Assembly: GCA_009694475.1 (NCBI GenBank)
Contig: SHUX01000007.1
Span: forward strand, 1-39,366
Direction of reading: 5' to 3'
From: Thermoleophilia bacterium
GTDB taxonomy: Bacteria; Actinomycetota; Thermoleophilia; Gaiellales; F1-60-MAGs149
Length of the DNA stretch: 39,366 nucleotides
Numbering within the stretch: position 1 is the stretch's first letter; each line of letters begins with the position of its first letter. A program made the translations under genes and the position numbers. Of this stretch, positions 1,146-28,421 are shown piece after piece. Under the pieces are notes generated by a model. The model was not told where the DNA came from. It ran no database searches and saw only the letters and a program-made list of their open reading frames with translations.

Positions 1146-2261
1146 GTGATCGACGACGCCGACCGAATCCTTCTGCAGCGCACGCTCGACCTCGCCGAGC
1201 GTGGGGCGCGCACCGCAGCGCCGAATCCGTGCGTTGGTTGCGTGATTGCACGCCATGGAACGGTCGTCGCTGAGGGCTGGCACATCGCTCCCGGTTTGGC
1301 GCACGCTGAGGCGATGGCGCTCGACGTCGCGCAGGAGGGCGCGCGTGACGCGACCGTCTACGTCTCACTCGAGCCATGCTCCCACCATGGCCGCACGCCG
1401 CCGTGCTCCGAGGCCTTGATTGCGGCCGGGGTAGGGCGCGTGGTTGTGCTGTCGAACGATCCGGCGCCCCATGCATCCGGCAAAGCGCTGCTGCAACTGG
1501 TCGATGCCGGTATCCCTGTCGACATTGTTCCCGATGACGATCCACTCGCAATTGCGGCGCGGCGACAGAACGCCGGCTTTCGATCCGCCCAGATCCTTGG
1601 TCGCCCTCACGTCACGTACAAAGCAGCGCAGACGCTCGATGGACGGTCGGCAACGCGGACGGGAGATAGTCGCTGGATCTCGGGTCCCGAGGCTCGAGCG
1701 CGCGTGCACGAGCTTCGCGCGCGAGCAGGGGCCGTCCTTGTCGGTTCGGGCACGGCGCTAACGGATGATCCAGAGTTGACCGCTCGTGATTGTGATCCTC
1801 CCGTCGAGCAGCAGCCACTCCGCGTCGTGTGGGATCGATCCGCTCGACTGGGCGCCGCCTCTCGGCTCGCACAGACGGTGTCGCGCGGGCCGGTGCTGCT
1901 GCTCTGTGCGCCGGGTGCCGATGCGTCAAGACGCGCAGCAGTAGCCGAGACGGGCATCGAAGTCGTCGAGGTGGCAGACCTCGCGGCGGGGCTCGATCAT
2001 CTCCACGCTCGCGGTATTCAGTCGGTGCTCTGTGAGGGTGGTGCTGGGTTGGCCGGCGCGCTCTTCGGGGTAGGGCTCCTCGATCGCATGATCGTTGTGG
2101 TCGCGCCGAAGCTGCTCGGCGACCCTTTGGCACCTGGCCTGCTGGGCGAGAGCGGAGCGGCCTCCGAGCAGATGGCTGATGCGCTTGGTTTGGCGGCGTG
2201 GTCGTGCGAACGGATCGGTGACGATCTATGGGTCGATGCGTGGCTACGAGAGCCACGCTGA
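1146..2261 (+). CDS. ribD: Bifunctional riboflavin deaminase/reductase RibD
   Basis: The 371-residue protein has an N-terminal cytidine-deaminase-like domain (about residues 1-145) with the zinc motifs HAEAMAL and EPCSHHGRTPPC, and a C-terminal RibD reductase domain (about 150-370) with HVTYKAAQTLDGRSAT and the nucleotide-binding LCEGGAGLAGAL. It deaminates the pyrimidine from GTP cyclohydrolase II and reduces its ribosyl chain to ribityl using NADPH. Length is typical. The GTG start is chosen because it directly precedes the conserved deaminase region and has a well-spaced -10 box. The stop at 2261 is ten bases before ribE, which has its own strong ribosome binding site. Confidence 0.96.
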   Translation: MIDDADRILLQRTLDLAERGARTAAPNPCVGCVIARHGTVVAEGWHIAPGLAHAEAMALDVAQEGARDATVYVSLEPCSHHGRTPPCSEALIAAGVGRVVVLSNDPAPHASGKALLQLVDAGIPVDIVPDDDPLAIAARRQNAGFRSAQILGRPHVTYKAAQTLDGRSATRTGDSRWISGPEARARVHELRARAGAVLVGSGTALTDDPELTARDCDPPVEQQPLRVVWDRSARLGAASRLAQTVSRGPVLLLCAPGADASRRAAVAETGIEVVEVADLAAGLDHLHARGIQSVLCEGGAGLAGALFGVGLLDRMIVVVAPKLLGDPLAPGLLGESGAASEQMADALGLAAWSCERIGDDLWVDAWLREPR

Positions 2262-2271
2262 CGGAGGCACC

Positions 2272-2880
2272 ATGTTTACTGGAATCGTGCAGGAGATCGG
2301 CGAGGTCGAGGAGGTTCAGCCCGCCGAGAACGGCGCGCGCATCGTGGTCCGCATGCCGGCACTCGCACCCGAGGTTGCTATGGGCGACTCCGTCAACGTC
2401 AACGGTACCTGTCTGACGGCTGTTGAGCTTGGTCCAGAACGCATCGCATTCGAGGCGATGGGTGAAACACTGGCACGGACCACTACGGGTGCTCTAGCCA
2501 GCGGCGCTCCCGTCAATCTTGAGCCGGCGTTGCGCCCGACCGATCGCATGGGTGGACACGTCGTACAGGGACATGTTGACGCGGTTGGAACCGTCGCCGC
2601 GATTCGTGCAGACGGAATCGCCATGGTTATTACGATCACCGCGCCACCCGCAATCACGCGCTACGTCGTCGAGAAGGGGTCGATCGCCGTCAATGGCGTC
2701 TCGTTGACGGTCTCGCAGGTTGTTGCCGAGGGTTTTGAGATCTGGTTGATCCCCCATACGTGCGAAGTGACTACCTTCGGCTCAATCAAGATGGGTGATG
2801 GTGTCAATCTTGAGGTAGACATTTATGCGAAGTACGTTGAGAAGTTTGCAGCCGAACGTGATCACGCGGCGGGCAATTGA
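2272..2880 (+). CDS. ribE: Riboflavin synthase alpha chain
   Basis: This 202-residue enzyme dismutates two 6,7-dimethyl-8-ribityllumazine molecules into riboflavin and the pyrimidinedione. The sequence begins MFTGIVQEIGEVEE, the hallmark N terminus whose Phe takes part in catalysis, and contains two lumazine-binding barrels. The first has NVNGTCLTAVEL and the second MGGHVVQGHVDAVG followed by IAVNGVSLTV, the usual internal duplication. ATG 2272 is preferred to upstream in-frame starts because ACGGAGG at 2261-2267 is a good ribosome binding site and the protein start matches the family. It lies ten bases after the ribD stop, so they are probably cotranscribed. Confidence 0.96.
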   Translation: MFTGIVQEIGEVEEVQPAENGARIVVRMPALAPEVAMGDSVNVNGTCLTAVELGPERIAFEAMGETLARTTTGALASGAPVNLEPALRPTDRMGGHVVQGHVDAVGTVAAIRADGIAMVITITAPPAITRYVVEKGSIAVNGVSLTVSQVVAEGFEIWLIPHTCEVTTFGSIKMGDGVNLEVDIYAKYVEKFAAERDHAAGN

Positions 2881-2924
2881 TGCTACTTCGCTACGATGAT
2901 CCAAACCCGTAAGCAGGGAATCTG

Positions 2925-4226
2925 ATGCATACGCCCGAACCCCCGTTCAGCCCAGTCGAGGACGCCATCGAGGATATTCGGCGTGGCAAGATGATCATCA
3001 TCATCGACGCTCCCGACCGCGAGAACGAAGGTGATCTCTGCATGGCAGCGGAGTTCGTGTCCGCCGATGACATCAACTTCATGGCGACGTACGCCCGCGG
3101 TCTGGTCTGTCTGACCTTGACGGCTGAGCGCTGTGACGAGTTGGGTCTGCAGCCGATGGTGGCGCATAACGTGACGACCTATGAGACGGCCTTCACTGTC
3201 ACGATCGAGGCGCGTGAAGGCATTACCACTGGCATTTCCGCTGCTGATCGTGCTCATACCTGCCGGGTCGCCGTTGACCCGTCGAAGGGTGCTGGCGACA
3301 TTCAGATGCCAGGCCACATCTTCCCGCTACGCGCCCGCCCGGGTGGCGTGCTTGAGCGCACCGGGCAGACTGAGGCCTCCGTCGACATTGCTCGGCTCGC
3401 TGGCTGCACACCGGCAGGCGTGATCTGCGAGGTGATGAATGTCGACGGCACAATGGCGCGCGTCGACGACCTCGCCATCTTTAGTGCCGAGCACGACATC
3501 AAAATCGTCACGGTTGCCGACATGATTGAGTATCGTCGGCGCACGGAGCAGCTGATTGAGCGAGTCGCGGAGGTGAGTCTGCCCACGCCATACGGCGAGT
3601 TCCACGCGATCGGCTATCGTGAGACGTTGGCCGACAAGCAGCACATGGCGCTGATCTACGGCGACGTCGCGGGCAAGGAAGACGTGCTCGTGCGTGTGCA
3701 CTCTGAGTGCCTGACGGGCGACGTCTTTGGTTCCCTGCGCTGCGATTGTGGCGAGCAGTTGCACATGGCGATGCAGCAGGTGGTCCAGGCTGGCAGCGGT
3801 GTCGTCTTGTACATGGCGCAGGAAGGCCGTGGCATTGGACTCCTCAACAAATTGCGTGCCTATGAGTTGCAGGAGAAGGGTCGCGACACTGTCGAGGCCA
3901 ATCTCGAACTCGGCTTCATGGACGATCAGCGCGAGTACGGTATTGGCGCGCAGATCCTCGCCGACCTTGATCTCACGACGATCAAGATCATGACGAATAA
4001 TCCCCGCAAGATCATTGGGCTCGAAGGCTATGGCCTGACCGTTACCGAGCAGGTACCGATTGAGGTCGAGCCGGGCGAGCACAACGCGCTCTACCTCAAG
4101 GCTAAGCGCGACAAGATGGGTCACTCTCTGCACCACCAGCACATCAAGGCAGCCGATGGTCTGCCGGGTGAGCCGCCGCGCATGACGGATCCGGCTGCAG
4201 AGGAGACGGCGGGCGCCCAGCAGTGA
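2925..4226 (+). CDS. ribBA: Bifunctional DHBP synthase / GTP cyclohydrolase II
   Basis: The 433-residue fusion supplies both arms of the riboflavin pathway. The N-terminal half (about 1-205) is 3,4-dihydroxy-2-butanone-4-phosphate synthase with DAPDRENEGDL, acidic metal ligands and SAADRAHTCR. The C-terminal half (about 215-410) is GTP cyclohydrolase II with VRVHSECLTGDVFGSLRCDC (three zinc Cys), MAQEGRGIGLLNKLRAYELQ and MTNNPRKIIGL. ATG 2925 has AAGCAGGGA upstream, and TACGAT at 2892-2897 could be a promoter. The 44-bp gap from ribE contains no obvious terminator. The stop overlaps the ribH GTG. Confidence 0.97.
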   Translation: MHTPEPPFSPVEDAIEDIRRGKMIIIIDAPDRENEGDLCMAAEFVSADDINFMATYARGLVCLTLTAERCDELGLQPMVAHNVTTYETAFTVTIEAREGITTGISAADRAHTCRVAVDPSKGAGDIQMPGHIFPLRARPGGVLERTGQTEASVDIARLAGCTPAGVICEVMNVDGTMARVDDLAIFSAEHDIKIVTVADMIEYRRRTEQLIERVAEVSLPTPYGEFHAIGYRETLADKQHMALIYGDVAGKEDVLVRVHSECLTGDVFGSLRCDCGEQLHMAMQQVVQAGSGVVLYMAQEGRGIGLLNKLRAYELQEKGRDTVEANLELGFMDDQREYGIGAQILADLDLTTIKIMTNNPRKIIGLEGYGLTVTEQVPIEVEPGEHNALYLKAKRDKMGHSLHHQHIKAADGLPGEPPRMTDPAAEETAGAQQ

Positions 4227-4720
4227 CGGCGCCCGACGCCGCTGGTTCGATCTCTGCGCCTGCAGGTGCGACGCGCCTAGAGCCGGTTGCGCTCGACGCT
4301 GCAACGCGGGTCGCCATTGTGGCGGCTGAGTATCACACAGACATCGTTCAGCCCCTGGTCGATGGAGCCGTCGCGGAGTGTCGCGAGCGTGGTGTCACGG
4401 ACGTCGTGGTGGTGCCTGTGCCGGGCGCGTTCGAGGTTGGCTTAGCGGCGCTGTACTGCGCCGAGTCGGACTTTGATGCTGTCGTGGTGCTTGCCTGTGT
4501 GATTCGCGGCGATACCCCGCACTTCGAGTACGTCTCAAGAGAGGCTGCCCGTGGTGTCTCTGATGCCGGGATGGCGACTGGGGTCCCGATGGGCTTTGGT
4601 GTCCTCACCGTTGAGACGCACCAACAGGCCGTCGATCGTGTCGGCGGCAGCGAAGGTCACAAGGGTCGCGAAGCAGCCGCTGCTGCGCTCGGCCTGCTGG
4701 CCACGCTGCGCGCGCTCTAG
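4223..4720 (+). CDS. ribH: 6,7-dimethyl-8-ribityllumazine synthase
   Basis: The 165-residue enzyme condenses the ribitylamino-pyrimidinedione with 3,4-dihydroxy-2-butanone 4-phosphate, giving the substrate of RibE. Family motifs are VPVPGAFEVGLAAL, ACVIRGDTPHFEYVS (catalytic His region) and MGFGVLTVET. The start GTG overlaps the ribBA stop as GTGA, so translation is probably coupled. The N-terminal extension of about 25 residues before RVAIVAAEY is low in complexity. It is the last gene of the riboflavin cluster. Confidence 0.96.
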   Translation: MTAPDAAGSISAPAGATRLEPVALDAATRVAIVAAEYHTDIVQPLVDGAVAECRERGVTDVVVVPVPGAFEVGLAALYCAESDFDAVVVLACVIRGDTPHFEYVSREAARGVSDAGMATGVPMGFGVLTVETHQQAVDRVGGSEGHKGREAAAAALGLLATLRAL

Positions 4721-4802
4721 TAGCGGCAATCTACATCCGTTTGTAGTGGGAGAGGACACCACACGTGCGCACTTGTCATGTCCTCCTAGCGCACGCCGCT
4801 AC
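4720..4802. other. Nested inverted repeats after ribH
   Basis: An 8-bp arm GTAGCGGC (4720-4727) pairs perfectly with GCCGCTAC (4795-4802) and encloses a second arm GAGGACA (4752-4758) pairing with TGTCCTC (4779-4785). The structure begins at the last base of the ribH stop and lies between convergent ribH and rpmB. It has no T-tract, so it may be a Rho-independent-like 3' end, an mRNA-stabilising structure or a small RNA. Confidence 0.3.
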
Positions 4803-4836
4803 AAGCCGGTCGAACTGATCCGCGCAGGGCCCTCGC

Positions 4837-5028
4837 TTAGAGGGCGCGTTGCACTTTGCCGGCCTTGAGGCAGCGAGTGCAGACGTACGCGCGAACGGCA
4901 ACACCGTTCTGGAGGATGCGCAGCTTCTGGAGGTTCGCGTCGAAGCGGCGCTTCGTGGCGATCATGGAATGACTGCGGTTGTTACCGAACGATGGACCAC
5001 GACCACAAGAGGTACAGATGCGCGACAT
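4837..5028 (-). CDS. rpmB: 50S ribosomal protein L28
   Basis: The 63-residue protein starts [20 protein letters not shown] and ends [15 protein letters not shown]. Two CxxC pairs make it the zinc-binding (C+) form of L28. An in-frame start 14 codons upstream is rejected because L28 begins at MSR. It is transcribed away from the DhaL-DegV gene, an arrangement common in many bacteria. A -10-like CATACT lies six bases upstream of the start on the minus strand, pointing to a leaderless mRNA. A short inverted repeat GCCCTC/GAGGGC (4829-4845) overlaps its stop codon. Confidence 0.96.
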
Positions 5029-5034
5029 GGGGGC

Positions 5035-5040
5035 AGTATG
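5035..5040 (-). promoter_or_regulatory. -10 box for leaderless rpmB
   Basis: On the minus strand CATACT sits six bases before the rpmB ATG with no Shine-Dalgarno sequence between them. Confidence 0.4.
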
Positions 5041-5082
5041 CTGGATCGGCGCGGATGCCGCAAACGACACCCGTCACGAAAC

Positions 5083-6801
5083 GTGCCCGGACCACTCTCA
5101 CCCACCCTCCTCGAACTCGCCTTAGGTGCCCGGATGCGGCTTGCGGGAGAGTGTGAGCGGTTGAATGCGATCAATGTCTTTCCGGTCGCCGATGGGGATA
5201 CCGGGTCGAATCTTCTGCACACCATTGATGCCGTCGTCGAGAGCCTGCGTGGTGACCCCGCTGATCCCGCACGTGCGGTCGGTGACGCGGCACTACTGGG
5301 TGCGCGGGGAAATAGCGGCACGATCCTCGCCAGCATGATCCGTACAGCAGCCAGCGAACTTGGCGCGGGGCAGCCGTTGACGCAGGCACTCCTGCGTGGG
5401 GCGCAAGCCGCCTACCGCGCCGTGCCCGAACCAGTCGAGGGCACGATGTTGACTGTTGCGCAGGCGCTCGCGGATGCCGCGCACGGCGAAACAATCGAGG
5501 AGTGCCTAGTGACTGCGCTCGCTGGTGCGCAGGCAGCGTTGGCACAGACACCCGACCAGCTCGAGCAACTGCGTTCGGCTGGTGTTGTCGACGCGGGTGC
5601 TGCTGGACTCGTCGCGCTGCTTGAGGGTGTTGCGGCCGTGTTGGCGGGCGAGCCAGTCGTCGACCACGGGTCCGTCGTGTCATTGCCGGCGGTGCACAGC
5701 GCAGACCCCACCAGTCACTATCGGTACTGCATTGGGTTCGTGGTGCGCAATGCCGATCTCGACGGCCTACGCAGCGCGGCCGACGGGTGGGGCGACTCAC
5801 TCGTGCTCGCGGGCGATCGGGAGTTGTTGCGTGTCCATGTGCATGCTGATGTTGTCGAGCACGTGACGGCAGCGGCCGGGGTATTCGGGGCAGTCTCCGA
5901 TCTCGCAGTCTTGGACATGCGCGCCGACAGTGTGGCCCCGCGCAGGCAACGGTCGCAGTTGGCAGGGACGGCGATTGTCTACGACTCAACCGCCGATCTG
6001 CCAGTGGCCGAGCACCCCGACTGGACGATGGTGCCGCTGACGGTGCACTTCGGGGAGACGGAATTTCGCGACTACGTCGACCTCAGCGCCGCTGAGTTCT
6101 ACGAGCGCCTCGCGTCGTCAGCGACGCACCCGACCACATCACAGCCGGCACCTGGAGCCTTTATTGCCACCTACCGCGACCTACTCGAGCGGTACGAGCA
6201 CGTCGTCTCGGTCCACATCTCCGCGGGGCTCAGCGGTACCTACGGTTCCGCCTGTACCGCCGCTCAAGAGTTTCCTGGCCGCGTGACGGTGATCGATAGT
6301 CGTCTTGTCTCGATGCCGTTGGCGCTTGGACTGGTGCGTGCGCAGGCGGCGCTCGACGCGGGGGCGAGCCCCGCCGAACTCCCGCTGCTATTCGAGCGAC
6401 TCCGCGAGCGCTCCGACTGCCTGTTTAGCGTTGCGACCTTGGAGTTTTTACAGCGCGGCGGCCGGATTGGGCGCGCTCAGGCGCTGGTTGGATCGCTGCT
6501 TGGCGTCCATCCCTTACTGGCGATCGAGCAGGGCGAGGTGGTGCCAATCGGGCGAGTGCGAGGCGAGGCGCGGGTGCTGCCCGAACTCGTGGCCGAGTTT
6601 GTGCGGCGCGCGTCGCCGTATCCGACGCTCGACGTCGCGATCGCTCATGCCGACGATCTGGAGCGCGCAGTGGAGCTCGAGGCGCTGGTGCGGGCGGCTC
6701 GGACGGGTATCCGTTCGGTCCGAATTCTTACGCTGGGCGCAGTGGTCGGCACGCATGCGGGACCCGGGGCACTCGGGCTTGCCTCCCTCGCGGCGGACTA
6801 G
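5083..6801 (+). CDS. FakA-FakB-like fusion: DhaL/DAK2 domain plus DegV domain
   Basis: The protein (about 572 residues from GTG 5083) joins two normally separate proteins. Residues about 1-200 form a DhaL (DAK2) kinase domain with NVFPVADGDTGSN, ARGNSGTILASMI and VDAGAAGLVALLEG. Residues about 210-290 resemble the FakA middle domain (YRYCIGFVVRN, GDSLVLAGDRELLRVHVH, VLDMR). Residues about 296-570 are a DegV/FakB fatty-acid-binding domain (IVYDSTADLP, TTSQPAPGAF, VHISAGLSGTYGSA, LFSVATLEFLQRGGRIGR). FakA phosphorylates fatty acids presented by FakB to make acyl-phosphate for phospholipid synthesis; here kinase and carrier are one chain, and the FakA C-terminal domain seems absent. The start is uncertain: ATG 5038 is also in frame. 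The 3' end overlaps the convergent small gene by four bases. Confidence 0.88.
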   Translation: MPGPLSPTLLELALGARMRLAGECERLNAINVFPVADGDTGSNLLHTIDAVVESLRGDPADPARAVGDAALLGARGNSGTILASMIRTAASELGAGQPLTQALLRGAQAAYRAVPEPVEGTMLTVAQALADAAHGETIEECLVTALAGAQAALAQTPDQLEQLRSAGVVDAGAAGLVALLEGVAAVLAGEPVVDHGSVVSLPAVHSADPTSHYRYCIGFVVRNADLDGLRSAADGWGDSLVLAGDRELLRVHVHADVVEHVTAAAGVFGAVSDLAVLDMRADSVAPRRQRSQLAGTAIVYDSTADLPVAEHPDWTMVPLTVHFGETEFRDYVDLSAAEFYERLASSATHPTTSQPAPGAFIATYRDLLERYEHVVSVHISAGLSGTYGSACTAAQEFPGRVTVIDSRLVSMPLALGLVRAQAALDAGASPAELPLLFERLRERSDCLFSVATLEFLQRGGRIGRAQALVGSLLGVHPLLAIEQGEVVPIGRVRGEARVLPELVAEFVRRASPYPTLDVAIAHADDLERAVELEALVRAARTGIRSVRILTLGAVVGTHAGPGALGLASLAAD

Positions 6802-6968
6802 GTCGGGGGAGTGCTGGCGCGTGCGGCCTTGCGTTCGCGGTGCTCGTTGACGAGTCGCGAGCCTTGCCGAATGGCGCAGCCGGGACCGTAGACTGGGCGC
6901 TTGAGGATCGTCGTCACAACCGCAATCACGATCCAAGCAACGACGAGAATAATGACCCACGACGGCAT
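6798..6968 (-). CDS. Small single-pass membrane protein, unknown
   Basis: A 56-residue ORF beginning MPSWVIILVVAWIVIAVVTT, which is one hydrophobic segment at the N terminus, followed by a basic cytoplasmic-type tail ending in REREAR-like residues and TPPT. The start was moved inward from longer in-frame options so the protein begins directly at the membrane segment. A -10-like TAGCGT lies seven bases upstream on the minus strand, fitting a leaderless start. It is divergent from the next gene and converges on the DhaL-DegV gene with overlapping stops. I do not recognise a family. Confidence 0.55.
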   Translation of the reverse strand: MPSWVIILVVAWIVIAVVTTILKRPVYGPGCAIRQGSRLVNEHRERKAARASTPPT

Positions 6969-7003
6969 GCAGCACACGCTAGCAGTACCCGAACCCCGAA
7001 TGC

Positions 7004-7009
7004 TATAGT
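7004..7009 (+). promoter_or_regulatory. Extended -10 promoter for leaderless gene at 7017
   Basis: TATAGT preceded by TGC lies seven bases before ATG 7017. No ribosome binding site is present, so transcription should begin at or next to the start codon. Confidence 0.55.
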
Positions 7010-7016
7010 GCGTTAC

Positions 7017-7322
7017 ATGAGCGAATATCAGATTACCTATTGGCGCGACATCCCCTCCATGGTCGTGGCGCGTGAAGGCGACGAGACCGCCCGGGCCCAG
7101 TTGGCACAGCGGTTTCAAGAGGCGATTGACGAGGCCGCCATGCGTGTTGGCGCGGCCGATGCCGACGCCTATATGGAGGGCTGGCGCAAGGGTGAGTGGA
7201 CGCCAACGGAGGGCACGCCGACTGAGGTTGCCGAACGGGTGACCGGCGAACTAGAAGCCGAGTTGAGCGAAGAAAGCCTGACCGCATTGCTCGACGAGCT
7301 CGGCCCCGCCCAGGAGGCCTGA
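7017..7322 (+). CDS. YWRDIP-type small protein (Virulence_fact-like family)
   Basis: The 101-residue acidic protein begins MSEYQITYWRDIPSMVVA and contains FQEAIDEAAMRVGAADADAY and MEGWRKGEW. This pattern matches, from memory, the small family labelled Virulence_fact (YWRDIPAQV ... AIDRAAM ... DAYLxxWR), whose members occur beside corrinoid- or folate-linked methyltransferase genes; the name is historical and the biochemical role is not known to me. Here it is followed after one base by a homocysteine-methyltransferase-like gene, supporting a role in one-carbon metabolism. The C-terminal 30 residues are acidic. The ATG is fixed by the leaderless promoter. Confidence 0.7.
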   Translation: MSEYQITYWRDIPSMVVAREGDETARAQLAQRFQEAIDEAAMRVGAADADAYMEGWRKGEWTPTEGTPTEVAERVTGELEAELSEESLTALLDELGPAQEA

Positions 7323-7323
7323 G

Positions 7324-8208
7324 ATGGTTGGCATACTTGAAACTCTGCAGTCCGGAGGGCACATCCTCGGGGACGGCGCGATGGGCACGATGCTTCAAGA
7401 GGCTGGTCTGACGGACGGTGGCGCGCCTGAACTCTGGAATGTTGAGCACCCCGACAGGATCGAGACGATCCTCGAGGCCTATGCCGCGGCTGGCTCGAAC
7501 CTGATCACCACCTGTACCTTTGGCGGTACGCGGCCGCGCCTCGAGATGCACGATCTCGGCGATCGCGTGTTCGAGCTCAACAAGGCTGGCGCCGCAGTAG
7601 CCCGTACGGTTGCCGATCGTCACCCAGGCGCCTACGTGCTGGGCGATGTTGGACCCAGTGGCGAACTAATGGAACCGATGGGCACGCTGACCCCGGAGGA
7701 CGCACAAGAGCTCTTCGCCGAGCAGATTCGCGGGCTCGTGGCTGGCGGAGCCGACGCGATTCTGATTGAGACGATGAGTGATCTGGGCGAAGTCGAGGCC
7801 GCCGTTCGTGCTGCTCAGGCTGAGGCGCCAGGTCTACCGATTCTCGCGACGATGTCCTTCGACACCAACCTGCACACCATGATGGGCGTGAAGCCGGGGC
7901 AGGCTGTCGAGGCGATTGCCGCCATGGGAGTGCCGATCATCGGTGCCAACTGCGGGCGCGGTGTAGACGAAATGCGCGTTATCGCTGCCGGCATGGTCGC
8001 GGCTCGGCCAGAGGGCGTATTTCTGATGGCCCAGTCGAATGCCGGTCTGCCCAAGCTCGTCGGCGATGAGTTTCTCTATGACGGCTCGCCTGAGGTGATG
8101 GCGGAATGGGCGACAGATATGCGCGAACTCGGCATCGATGTCATCGGTGCCTGTTGTGGTTCGACACCCGAGCACATCGCTGCGATGCGCCCGATCGTGC
8201 TTGCCTGA
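7324..8208 (+). CDS. Homocysteine S-methyltransferase family protein
   Basis: The 294-residue protein is a single Hcy-binding TIM-barrel, as in the first domain of MetH and in BHMT. It shows LGDGAMGTMLQEAGL, ITTCTFGGTRPRL, VLGDVGPSGELMEPMG and LIETMSDLGEVEAA. The three zinc Cys are in GANCGRG and in IGACCGSTPEHI near the C terminus. It should move a methyl group to homocysteine or another thiol; the methyl donor (betaine, a corrinoid, methyl-folate) cannot be read from sequence. It has no cobalamin domain. It starts one base after the YWRDIP protein stop, so the two are cotranscribed and may act together. Confidence 0.85.
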   Translation: MVGILETLQSGGHILGDGAMGTMLQEAGLTDGGAPELWNVEHPDRIETILEAYAAAGSNLITTCTFGGTRPRLEMHDLGDRVFELNKAGAAVARTVADRHPGAYVLGDVGPSGELMEPMGTLTPEDAQELFAEQIRGLVAGGADAILIETMSDLGEVEAAVRAAQAEAPGLPILATMSFDTNLHTMMGVKPGQAVEAIAAMGVPIIGANCGRGVDEMRVIAAGMVAARPEGVFLMAQSNAGLPKLVGDEFLYDGSPEVMAEWATDMRELGIDVIGACCGSTPEHIAAMRPIVLA

Positions 8209-25807: not shown

Positions 25808-26149
25808 ATGAACATTGTCGAAGAGATCGAAGCAGCACAGCGCCGAGAGGTCCCGCAGTTCAAAGCGGGCGATACGGTCAAGGTGCATTTCCGCGTGATC
25901 GAGGGCAACCGCCAGCGCGTGCAGGTCTTTGAGGGTGTCTGCATCAAGCGTCATGGTCATGGCACGCGCGAGACCTTTACGGTCCGCAAGCAGTCGTTCG
26001 GTGTCGGTGTTGAGCGTACGTTCCCGCTGCACTCTCCTAAGATTGACAAGATTGATGTGGGCGCAATTGGCATGGTTCGGCGCGCGAAGCTGTACTACCT
26101 GCGTGACAAGGTTGGCAAGCAGGCACGTATCCGCGAGAAGCTCCAGTAG
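25808..26149 (+). CDS. rplS: 50S ribosomal protein L19
   Basis: The 113-residue protein has the L19 pattern [54 protein letters not shown] and a C-terminal [19 protein letters not shown] longer in-frame reading upstream is rejected because L19 begins near MNIVEEIE. Followed by lepB after 44 bases. Confidence 0.97.
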
Positions 26150-26193: not shown

Positions 26194-26793
26194 GTGGCAA
26201 CGCTAAACGCATTGCGCAAGCATCCGGTCATCGATCTGATTCTGACCGTCGCGGTGGCGATTGGTATTGCCTATCTCGTTCAGGCGTTTATCGTCAAGCC
26301 GTACCGCGTGCCGTCGGGTTCGATGGAGCCGACGATCGCGATTGGCGAGCGCATCATTGCCGCGCGCTTCACATTCCGCTTCTCTGACCCGACGCGCAAT
26401 CAGATCATCGTGTTTCATCCCAATGGCGTGGGGGACGATGTCTACGACACCGATACGGCGTCGGATCAGACGTTCGTCAAGCGTCTGATCGGTATGCCGG
26501 GCGAGGTCGTTGGCGCTGTCGATGGTCGGGTCTACATCTGCACGGGGCAGGGTCCGCAGGAGGGGCAGGAGATCGTGTCGACGCCCGACTGTTCGTTCCC
26601 GGATCAGTTGTTTGTGTCGAGTCCGCAGGACGATTTTGGTCCAACCGCGATTCCGGCGGATCGCTACTTCATGATGGGTGATAACCGTGCCGACTCCGAT
26701 GACTCCCGCAACTGGGGCCCGATTACGCGTGATCAGATGATTGGTGTCACGTTCATGTCGTACTGGCCACCCAGTCGCATCTCGATCTGGTAG
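26194..26793 (+). CDS. lepB: Signal peptidase I (active)
   Basis: The 199-residue serine protease removes signal peptides at the membrane. One N-terminal membrane segment (about 12-33) is followed by box B YRVPSGSMEPTIAIGERI with catalytic Ser43, box D FVKRLIGMPGEVV with catalytic Lys96, and box E MMGDNRADSDDSRNWGPI. All catalytic elements are present. GTG start. It is the first of two tandem paralogues; only three bases separate them. Location next to rplS and rnhB is the usual actinobacterial lepB site. Confidence 0.95.
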   Translation: MATLNALRKHPVIDLILTVAVAIGIAYLVQAFIVKPYRVPSGSMEPTIAIGERIIAARFTFRFSDPTRNQIIVFHPNGVGDDVYDTDTASDQTFVKRLIGMPGEVVGAVDGRVYICTGQGPQEGQEIVSTPDCSFPDQLFVSSPQDDFGPTAIPADRYFMMGDNRADSDDSRNWGPITRDQMIGVTFMSYWPPSRISIW

Positions 26794-26796
26794 GCG

Positions 26797-27711
26797 ATGG
26801 CAGCGAGCGAGCCCCGACAACGGCGCCGCAATCGGCTCAGGCGTGTGCCGCGCCTGCTCTGGTTGGCTGGCTGGGCACGTTGGCCGCGCCCACTGATTGG
26901 GCTCCTGTTGGTGATTGTGTTCTTGCTCGCGGGGGTTGTCTGGCCACCGTTTGTCTGGGCTGCGGCGTTCGTGTGGGGATTGTGGGCGGCTATCGTCGTC
27001 TTGGATGCTGGTCTGAGGCGCTCGCAGGGTGTGCTGGCCGCGATCGTCGCGATCGTGTTCGGTCCGCTTGGCGTCTGTCTTGTGATGTGGAGTCGGCGGC
27101 GCGCGATTCGGAAGGTCCCCGACGATGGCCTATCGTGGCCGATGGGTTATGCGGTCGTTGCACTGCTCGCGGGCTTTGTCATGAGCGCCTTGCTGATGGG
27201 CGTCGTGGTGCGGGCAGGCCCGCACGGTGTCGATGTGCCGCGCGCAGCCATGGGTGAGCGCATCTTGGCGGGTGATCGCGTGCTTGTCGTGCCGGTCTCG
27301 ATGGTTGCGGTTGGGCGTGGTGACCTGGTTGCGGTCGATCGATTCGAGGGCGTTGATGAGGCACTCAGTTCGTCGGCTGGGATTGCGGGTGTTGGTCGTA
27401 TTGTGGGTCAGCCGGGCGAGGTGATCGGTGCGGCTAATGGGGCTCTTTATATCTGCAAAAAGCTGCCGGATGCGGCCGTTGGTTTGCAGCCAGAGGATGA
27501 GTGTACGAATCCGTCTGAATTGATGTATCTGCGTACACCAACCCCTGACTTCGGGCCGATTCTGATCCCAGCGGGCACCGTCTGGGTGATGACGGATGAT
27601 CGTGCCGGCGCGCTGATCGATTCGCGCGTGTACGGCGCGGTGCCGGAGCAGGCGCTGATGGGTCGTGTGGTGGCCGTCCTGACCCCGCTGTCACGCCTCG
27701 GCATTCTCTAG
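26797..27711 (+). CDS. Signal-peptidase-like protein lacking catalytic residues
   Basis: The 304-residue protein has an Arg-rich N terminus and several hydrophobic segments (about 32-48, 52-70, 78-98, 115-138), then a domain aligning along its length with the LepB just upstream. Matching pieces are VPRAAMGERILAGDRVLV, GRIVGQPGEVIGAANGALYI, TPDFGPILIPAGTVWVM and IDSRVYGAV. At the catalytic Ser (PSGSM in the neighbour) it has Ala151 (PRAAM), and at the catalytic Lys (VKRLIG) it has Gly200 (VGRIVG). It also loses the GDNR motif (TDDR). It is therefore predicted to be a membrane pseudoprotease, perhaps a partner or regulator of LepB. ATG follows the lepB stop by three bases. Confidence 0.85.
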   Translation: MAASEPRQRRRNRLRRVPRLLWLAGWARWPRPLIGLLLVIVFLLAGVVWPPFVWAAAFVWGLWAAIVVLDAGLRRSQGVLAAIVAIVFGPLGVCLVMWSRRRAIRKVPDDGLSWPMGYAVVALLAGFVMSALLMGVVVRAGPHGVDVPRAAMGERILAGDRVLVVPVSMVAVGRGDLVAVDRFEGVDEALSSSAGIAGVGRIVGQPGEVIGAANGALYICKKLPDAAVGLQPEDECTNPSELMYLRTPTPDFGPILIPAGTVWVMTDDRAGALIDSRVYGAVPEQALMGRVVAVLTPLSRLGIL

Positions 27712-27770: not shown

Positions 27771-28421
27771 ATGGCTACCGCGACACGTAATCGCGCTCCC
27801 GGACTGGCGCTGATTGCGCATGATCAGACTCTTGGGCAGCGTTTTGTGGCCGGAGCCGACGAGGCAGGGCGTGGCGCCTTGGCGGGACCGCTCGTCGCCG
27901 CTGCGGTGTTGCTGGAGCCGGGCGCTTTGGGTGCGGATGAACAGGTCTTGCTCGCGCGACTAAACGACTCGAAGAAGCTCTCCGCTGGTGTGCGTGACGA
28001 GCTTGCGCTGGCGATTAGTTCAGTGGCCGTGCGGATTGCGGTTGTCACGATCGCGAGTACAGAGATCGACGAGCATGGTATTCAGGTGGCTAATCTCGGT
28101 GGGCTGAGTCGCGCGCTCGATCTGCTCGAGGTGCCCGAGGGAGCGGTGTTGCTGGTCGATGGGTTTGCACTGCCGATGCAGGTGCGCGCGCATCGTCCGC
28201 TTGTCAAGGGTGATGCCATTAGCGCTGCGATCGCGGCCGCGTCGATCATTGCCAAGACGACGCGTGATCGTGTGATGGAAGGTCTTGACGTGGCTTCGCC
28301 GGGCTACGGCTTTGCGGCCCACGCGGGGTATGGCACGGCGGTGCATCGAGAGGCCATCTCGCGACTGGGGCCGTGCCATGTGCATCGCTACTCGTTTGCG
28401 CCGATCGCTGTCGCTGCGTAG
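27771..28421 (+). CDS. rnhB: Ribonuclease HII
   Basis: The 216-residue enzyme removes ribonucleotides and RNA from RNA-DNA hybrids. Catalytic acids are in VAGADEAGRGALAGPLVAAA (Asp-Glu) and LLVDGFALP; other motifs are LNDSKKLSAG and VKGDAISAAIAAASIIAKTT, ending GYGTAVHREAISRLGPC. Length normal. The yraN reading frame overlaps its 3' end. Confidence 0.95.
   Translation: MATATRNRAPGLALIAHDQTLGQRFVAGADEAGRGALAGPLVAAAVLLEPGALGADEQVLLARLNDSKKLSAGVRDELALAISSVAVRIAVVTIASTEIDEHGIQVANLGGLSRALDLLEVPEGAVLLVDGFALPMQVRAHRPLVKGDAISAAIAAASIIAKTTRDRVMEGLDVASPGYGFAAHAGYGTAVHREAISRLGPCHVHRYSFAPIAVAA

What the first reader, a model, noticed from the sequence alone, without database searches (positions are those of the whole stretch)
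26797..27711. Dead signal peptidase paralogue directly behind active lepB
It aligns along its length with the upstream LepB but has Ala151 for the catalytic Ser and Gly200 for the catalytic Lys, loses GDNR, and gains several membrane segments. Yet it is a full open frame three bases downstream of lepB, which suggests a kept non-catalytic role such as a LepB partner.
Basis: partly seen in the sequence, partly recalled or inferred. Interest (0 to 1): 0.6.

Follow-up and report, generated by a model that had tools for sequence, protein, structure and literature searches.

The report
Conserved dead signal peptidase beside lepB
Directly behind the gene for the enzyme that trims exported proteins, this lake bacterium and all 15 held relatives in its family keep a second copy that cannot cut and has gained extra membrane helices, so the dead copy probably does a non-cutting job in protein export.

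Summary
Window 26797-27711 (+) encodes a 304-aa protein, here called X. Its last ~178 residues are a type I signal peptidase (S26) domain (Pfam 3.6e-14, above the NCBIfam cut-off, AlphaFold/Foldseek match), and it starts 3 nt after an intact lepB. Ala151 and Gly200 stand for the catalytic Ser43 and Lys96 of LepB; GDNR is TDDR. One correction: residues 1 to ~110 are not LepB-like but a separate three-helix membrane domain.

It is neither decay nor chance. X is present, dead and intact in all 16 held genomes of its family (4 genera, freshwater Thermoleophilia/Gaiellales), always between lepB and rnhB where assembly allows. All X form one clade (100/100), under purifying selection (dN/dS 0.05-0.31, like lepB). 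No Lys or His is conserved in its S26 domain, so no shifted dyad exists. Other families of the order have lepB without X. The 13 genus members have exactly two S26 proteins, LepB and X, and no sortase, which excludes the pilus job of streptococcal SipA.

Best reading: a membrane pseudo-signal-peptidase, a non-catalytic accessory of export or LepB. 'Dead and kept' is near certain; the LepB partnership is inference (coevolution and fusion-model tests gave no support). It is a new variant of a known kind (SpsA, SipA).

The parts
25808..26149 (+). rplS (ribosomal protein L19), conserved upstream neighbour
   Evidence: Found by tblastn in the same order in relatives; name from gene order and general knowledge, inferred.
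26194..26793 (+). lepB, active type I signal peptidase, 199 aa, GTG start; catalytic Ser43 (26320-26322) and Lys96 (26479-26481), box E GDNR intact
   Evidence: PF10502 2.7e-40; TIGR02227 127 bits; boxes.
26797..27711 (+). X: catalytically dead S26 paralogue (pseudo-signal-peptidase), 304 aa
26797..27138 (+). X residues 1-114: Arg-rich tail plus three predicted extra membrane helices (32-48, 51-73, 78-99; conserved RWPRP, W49, W60, D70, GPL, RRxxRK), found only in X of this family
   Evidence: AF2 helices; 17 invariant positions; no family at cut-off; no counterpart in class or phylum samples.
27217..27708 (+). X residues 141-304: S26-fold domain, predicted to lie outside the membrane
   Evidence: Foldseek to SPase I structures and SipA 4n31; profile hits 4k8w/4n31/4wvg/1b12.
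27247..27249 (+). Ala151 codon at the place of the catalytic serine (A in 14, E in 1, G in 1 of 16 X)
27394..27396 (+). Gly200 codon at the place of the catalytic lysine (G in 14, A in 1, L in 1 of 16 X)
27592..27603 (+). TDDR (residues 266-269) in place of GDNR
27619..27627 (+). Asp275-Ser276-Arg277, the structural DSR motif, kept in all 16 X
27771..28421 (+). rnhB (ribonuclease HII), conserved downstream neighbour
   Evidence: Same order in relatives; name from general knowledge, inferred.

Best explanation
X is a membrane-anchored pseudo-signal-peptidase. Shown by sequence and comparison: an ancient paralogue of LepB lost Ser, Lys and their supporting residues, kept the S26 fold, acquired a new N-terminal membrane domain, and has since been inherited vertically directly behind lepB under purifying selection. 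Inferred: it is made together with LepB at matched amounts (3-4 nt spacing, same strand); the S26 domain sits on the outer face of the cytoplasmic membrane like that of LepB; and it acts without cutting, as an accessory of signal-peptide processing, either holding or presenting exported precursors through its residual hydrophobic groove or binding LepB and modulating it. The extra helices would place it in the membrane next to LepB or the translocon.
For: X is present in 16/16 genomes of the family, four genera, in the order rplS-lepB-X-rnhB wherever contigs allow. Spacing is 3-4 nt in 11 contiguous genus loci; the two loci split by contig ends show the same geometry. Catalytic Ser and Lys are absent in all 16 while every genus lepB keeps both. 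X is one clade with 100/100 support. dN/dS is 0.05-0.31 against 0.06-0.21 for lepB. No Lys or His is conserved in the S26 domain of X; structural residues (GDR, R201, C220/C236, FGP, DSR) are invariant. The fold matches SPase I, with the best target-normalised score (0.71) to the dead homologue SipA. Cleft-lining hydrophobic positions (V147, P148, M152, V162) are conserved in 15-16 of 16. The genus has exactly two S26 proteins, LepB and X.
Against: No direct sign of contact with LepB: the X-LepB distance correlation vanishes when neighbouring genes are controlled for (partial r 0.12; 0.75 with rnhB). The fused LepB-X model is poor (pTM 0.46, LepB half pLDDT often below 50), which is uninformative rather than negative. 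X evolves faster than LepB (mean distance 0.64 against 0.39). Adjacency may partly be a relic of tandem duplication. In the genus the groove residue Ser41 is mostly Arg, so peptide binding may be altered. No expression data exist.
Confidence: 0.5

Rival explanations
1. X acts independently of LepB as an escort or assembly factor for particular exported or surface proteins, like streptococcal SipA in pilus polymerisation; the place behind lepB only reflects its origin by tandem duplication.
For: SipA is a dead SPase homologue with Lys replaced by Gly, cleft retained, essential for pilus assembly (PMC4049620). X profile's best PDB hits are the dead LepA/SipA. X-LepB coevolution is not specific.
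Against: No sortase (PF04203) in any of 13 genus members, so the known SipA job is impossible there (the genomes are incomplete drafts). The neighbours are housekeeping genes, no pilus cluster.
Confidence: 0.27
2. X is a fading tandem duplicate with no selected function.
For: Tandem lepB copies are common in the class, and one in G013 is half-decayed with Ser replaced by Ala but Lys kept. S. aureus SpsA, an inactive homologue beside the active SpsB, is reported dispensable (PMC12445088).
Against: 16/16 retention without stops across four genera, dN/dS well below 1, a conserved added membrane domain, invariant structural motifs.
Confidence: 0.04
3. X is a still-active hydrolase with a rearranged or different active site.
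For: Thr266/Ser at the former Gly of GDNR and invariant Asp267 and Ser276 lie near the old active site; the outer domain is conserved.
Against: No Lys or His conserved in the S26 domain (best Lys column 7 of 16, best His column 11 of 16, at the domain edge). Ser position varies A/E/G. Ser276 and Asp275 belong to the structural DSR motif shared with LepB.
Confidence: 0.05
4. X is mainly a membrane protein whose new N-terminal helices carry the function (for example a lipid or translocon-binding module), with the S26 domain as a structural outer cap.
For: The three-helix domain is specific to X and holds 17 positions invariant in 14 aligned members. Its selection is as strong as that of the S26 domain (w 0.073 and 0.081).
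Against: Over all 16 it is slightly less conserved than the S26 domain (entropy 1.18 against 0.98); no known membrane domain matches.
Confidence: 0.14

Closest known systems
SpsA of Staphylococcus aureus (inactive type I signal peptidase next to SpsB)
   Same: Dead type I SPase homologue in a species with an active one; lacks both catalytic residues and is listed as inactive (PMC12445088). That spsA lies directly beside spsB is from general knowledge.
   Different: X lies downstream of lepB, carries an extra three-helix membrane domain, and is a separate lineage; SpsA is reported dispensable, for X it is unknown.
SipA/LepA of Streptococcus pyogenes pilus clusters (PDB 4n31, 4k8w)
   Same: SPase I fold without the dyad, Lys replaced by Gly in both, invariant Gly272 and Ser278 also lost; best sequence-profile and target-normalised structural matches.
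   Different: SipA sits in a sortase pilus cluster and works in pilus polymerisation; X sits with lepB in housekeeping surroundings and its genus has no sortase. Ser is Asp in SipA, Ala in X.
Bacterial LepB / SPase I (PF10502, TIGR02227)
   Same: Fold, anchor helix before the outer domain, GD-R, R-x-x-G, FGP and DSR motifs, Cys pair.
   Different: No catalytic Ser or Lys, no GDNR; extra membrane domain.
Tandem multiple SPases (Streptomyces sipW/X/Y/Z, from general knowledge; tandem lepB in sister families here)
   Same: Several S26 genes in a row.
   Different: The arrays read in other families keep Ser and Lys, apart from one lone Glu/Glu copy in G250; X alone forms a conserved dead clade.

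Membership tests
Type I signal peptidase, active enzyme (S26) | S26 fold/sequence family | tested here: met
   PF10502 3.6e-14, TIGR02227 above cut-off; Foldseek.
Type I signal peptidase, active enzyme (S26) | Catalytic Ser in box B | tested here: not met
   A/E/G in all 16 X.
Type I signal peptidase, active enzyme (S26) | General-base Lys in box D | tested here: not met
   G/A/L in all 16 X; no conserved Lys elsewhere in the domain.
Type I signal peptidase, active enzyme (S26) | Box E GDNR with the Ser that supports Lys | tested here: not met
   TDDR/SDDR and no Ser in the genus; GDNR kept in G013 X and GDDR in G014 X.
Type I signal peptidase, active enzyme (S26) | Peptidase activity | not testable with these tools
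   Needs a biochemical assay.
SpsA-type inactive SPase paired with an active one | Both catalytic residues lost, fold kept | tested here: met
SpsA-type inactive SPase paired with an active one | Next to an active SPase gene, conserved | tested here: met
   16/16 genomes.
SpsA-type inactive SPase paired with an active one | Common descent with SpsA after inactivation | not tested
   SpsA sequence not held; restriction of X to one family suggests independent origin.
SipA/LepA pilus factor | SPase fold without dyad | tested here: met
SipA/LepA pilus factor | Hydrophobic peptide cleft kept | tested here: inconclusive
   Hydrophobic floor positions conserved, but Ser41 to Arg in 11 of 16 and Phe94 to Gly.
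SipA/LepA pilus factor | Encoded with pilins and sortase | tested here: not met
   Housekeeping neighbours; no sortase in 13 genus genomes.
SipA/LepA pilus factor | Needed for pilus polymerisation | not testable with these tools

The most novel reading that the evidence does not exclude
X is a dedicated non-catalytic subunit of a two-part bacterial signal peptidase: LepB and X form an obligate membrane complex in this family, with X selecting or holding substrates, an independent counterpart of the accessory subunits of the eukaryotic signal peptidase complex.
Probability: 0.2. Interest if true: 0.65.

Novelty: new variant of a known kind. Interest (0 to 1): 0.4.

Why it matters
Dead signal peptidases are known in a few Gram-positive bacteria, where one is reported dispensable and one is a pilus factor. 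Here is one kept by every held genome of an environmental family, next to what is in the genus the sole active signal peptidase, with a membrane domain of its own and in a genus without sortases. It separates 'dead SPase' from pilus biology and offers a clean case for asking whether bacteria can have accessory signal-peptidase subunits.

Tried and rejected
Decay or pseudogene: rejected by 16/16 retention and dN/dS. Shifted Ser/Lys or Ser/His dyad: rejected, no conserved Lys or His in the domain. SipA-type sortase-pilus function: rejected for the genus, no sortase. Known N-terminal domain: Pfam scan of 14 members gave nothing at cut-off, and class and phylum samples gave no convincing counterpart. 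Spread on viruses or plasmids: none among viral contigs; on plasmids only distant lepB-like matches. LepB-X coevolution: no signal beyond phylogeny. Promoter between lepB and X: none found by consensus scan, which is weak evidence in this lineage.

Full report
What is there. The window carries rplS (25808-26149), lepB (26194-26793), X (26797-27711) and rnhB (27771-28421) on the + strand. X begins 3 nt after the lepB stop and in the same frame. LepB is a normal type I signal peptidase (PF10502 2.7e-40; TIGR02227 127 bits) and X is a weaker but certain member of the same family (3.6e-14; 59.9 bits against a curated cut-off of 47). The two align at 31% over 166 residues, E = 2e-19.

Catalytic residues. 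Over 16 X proteins the Ser place is A (14), E (1), G (1) and the Lys place G (14), A (1), L (1). GDNR is TDDR here, SDDR in the other genus members, and GDNR or GDDR in two sister genera. No Lys column in the S26 domain reaches more than 7 of 16 and the best His column, at the very edge of the domain, 11 of 16, so no relocated dyad exists. What stays invariant is structural: GDR, R201, the Cys pair 220/236, FGP, DR, DSR, G289.

Architecture. Residues 1-114 form an Arg-rich tail and a domain with three extra predicted helices (32-48, 51-73, 78-99), followed by an anchor helix 113-140. This domain has 17 positions invariant in 14 aligned members, matches no Pfam family at cut-off, and has no convincing counterpart outside X in samples of 249 genomes of the class and 296 of the phylum. 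The AlphaFold2 model (pLDDT 78, pTM 0.67) matches solved signal peptidases (SpsB, E. coli LepB) with E near 1e-6 and fits the dead homologue SipA (4n31) best by target-normalised TM-score, 0.71; a profile of X also finds LepA/SipA first in the PDB.

Distribution and history. Every one of the 16 held genomes of the family has X (13 of the genus, 3 sister genera), in the order rplS-lepB-X-rnhB wherever the contigs show it; in two genomes the gene is cut by a contig end. Spacing lepB-X is 3 or 4 nt in the contiguous genus loci. Other families of the order that were read (G016, G019, G028) have a single lepB between rplS and rnhB. Named records place the lineage among freshwater Actinobacteria, with titles Thermoleophilia and Gaiellales. 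All X form one clade with 100/100 support on a long stem. The tree joins long branches, so from which lepB copy X arose is not settled. Tandem lepB arrays in other families of the class keep Ser and Lys, apart from a lone Glu/Glu copy in G250.

Selection. NG86 dN/dS in three groups of near relatives is 0.05-0.31 for X and 0.06-0.21 for lepB; in the window's own group the membrane domain (0.073) and the S26 domain (0.081) are equally constrained. X changes faster than LepB overall (mean distance 0.64 against 0.39), but this is far from neutral decay.

Mechanism. Shown: dead, intact, conserved, S26-folded, with an added membrane domain, always behind lepB. Inferred: coupled expression with LepB, outer-face location of the S26 domain (as in LepB), and a binding rather than cutting role. 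The groove floor stays hydrophobic (V147, P148, M152, V162 conserved), but Ser41 of LepB is Arg in 11 of 16 and Phe94 is Gly, so the groove is modified. The residue mapping to E. coli subsites rests on published descriptions and general knowledge. Each genus member has exactly two S26 proteins, LepB and X, so LepB is the only other S26 protein with which X could work. Against a special LepB partnership: the distance correlation of X with LepB given neighbouring genes is 0.12, lower than with rnhB (0.75); a LepB-X read-through fusion gave only pTM 0.46 with a shallow alignment. Hence 'accessory of LepB or export' is held at about even odds, with an independent escort role next.

Comparison with the known. 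Two precedents exist: S. aureus SpsA, inactive and reported dispensable (PMC12445088), and S. pyogenes SipA, which lacks the dyad (Asp48, Gly85), keeps the cleft and is needed for pilus assembly (PMC4049620). X shares the loss of the whole catalytic environment with SipA, including Lys to Gly, but sits in no pilus cluster, and none of the 13 genus genomes has a sortase, so the SipA job cannot be its job there. The extra membrane domain and the strict family-wide pairing with lepB were not met in these precedents as described. It is therefore a new variant of a known kind.

Noticed in passing
L047 (G013:C5) 5038-7565: A sister genus has four tandem lepB copies before X; the third (6320-6934) has Ala for the catalytic Ser but keeps Lys, a second, younger case of inactivation.
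   Followed up: partly
L105 (G250:C47), minus strand, frame starting at 1913: A 172-aa S26 protein in another family of the order has Glu at both catalytic positions, apparently an independent inactivation without extra membrane helices.
   Followed up: no
L033 (G001) 7164-7310 and L037 (G004) 822-968: In these two genus members yraN and comM are missing between rnhB and dprA, where the others keep them.
   Followed up: no
L046 (G012) 3288-4716 and L049 (G015) 1164-4886: Extra DNA of about 1.4 kb (trmD-rimM) and 3.7 kb (trmD-rplS) interrupts the otherwise conserved gene row.
   Followed up: no
L054 and L062 record titles: Two lake MAGs of this lineage are titled Bifidobacterium breve in the public records, evidently misnamed.
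   Followed up: no
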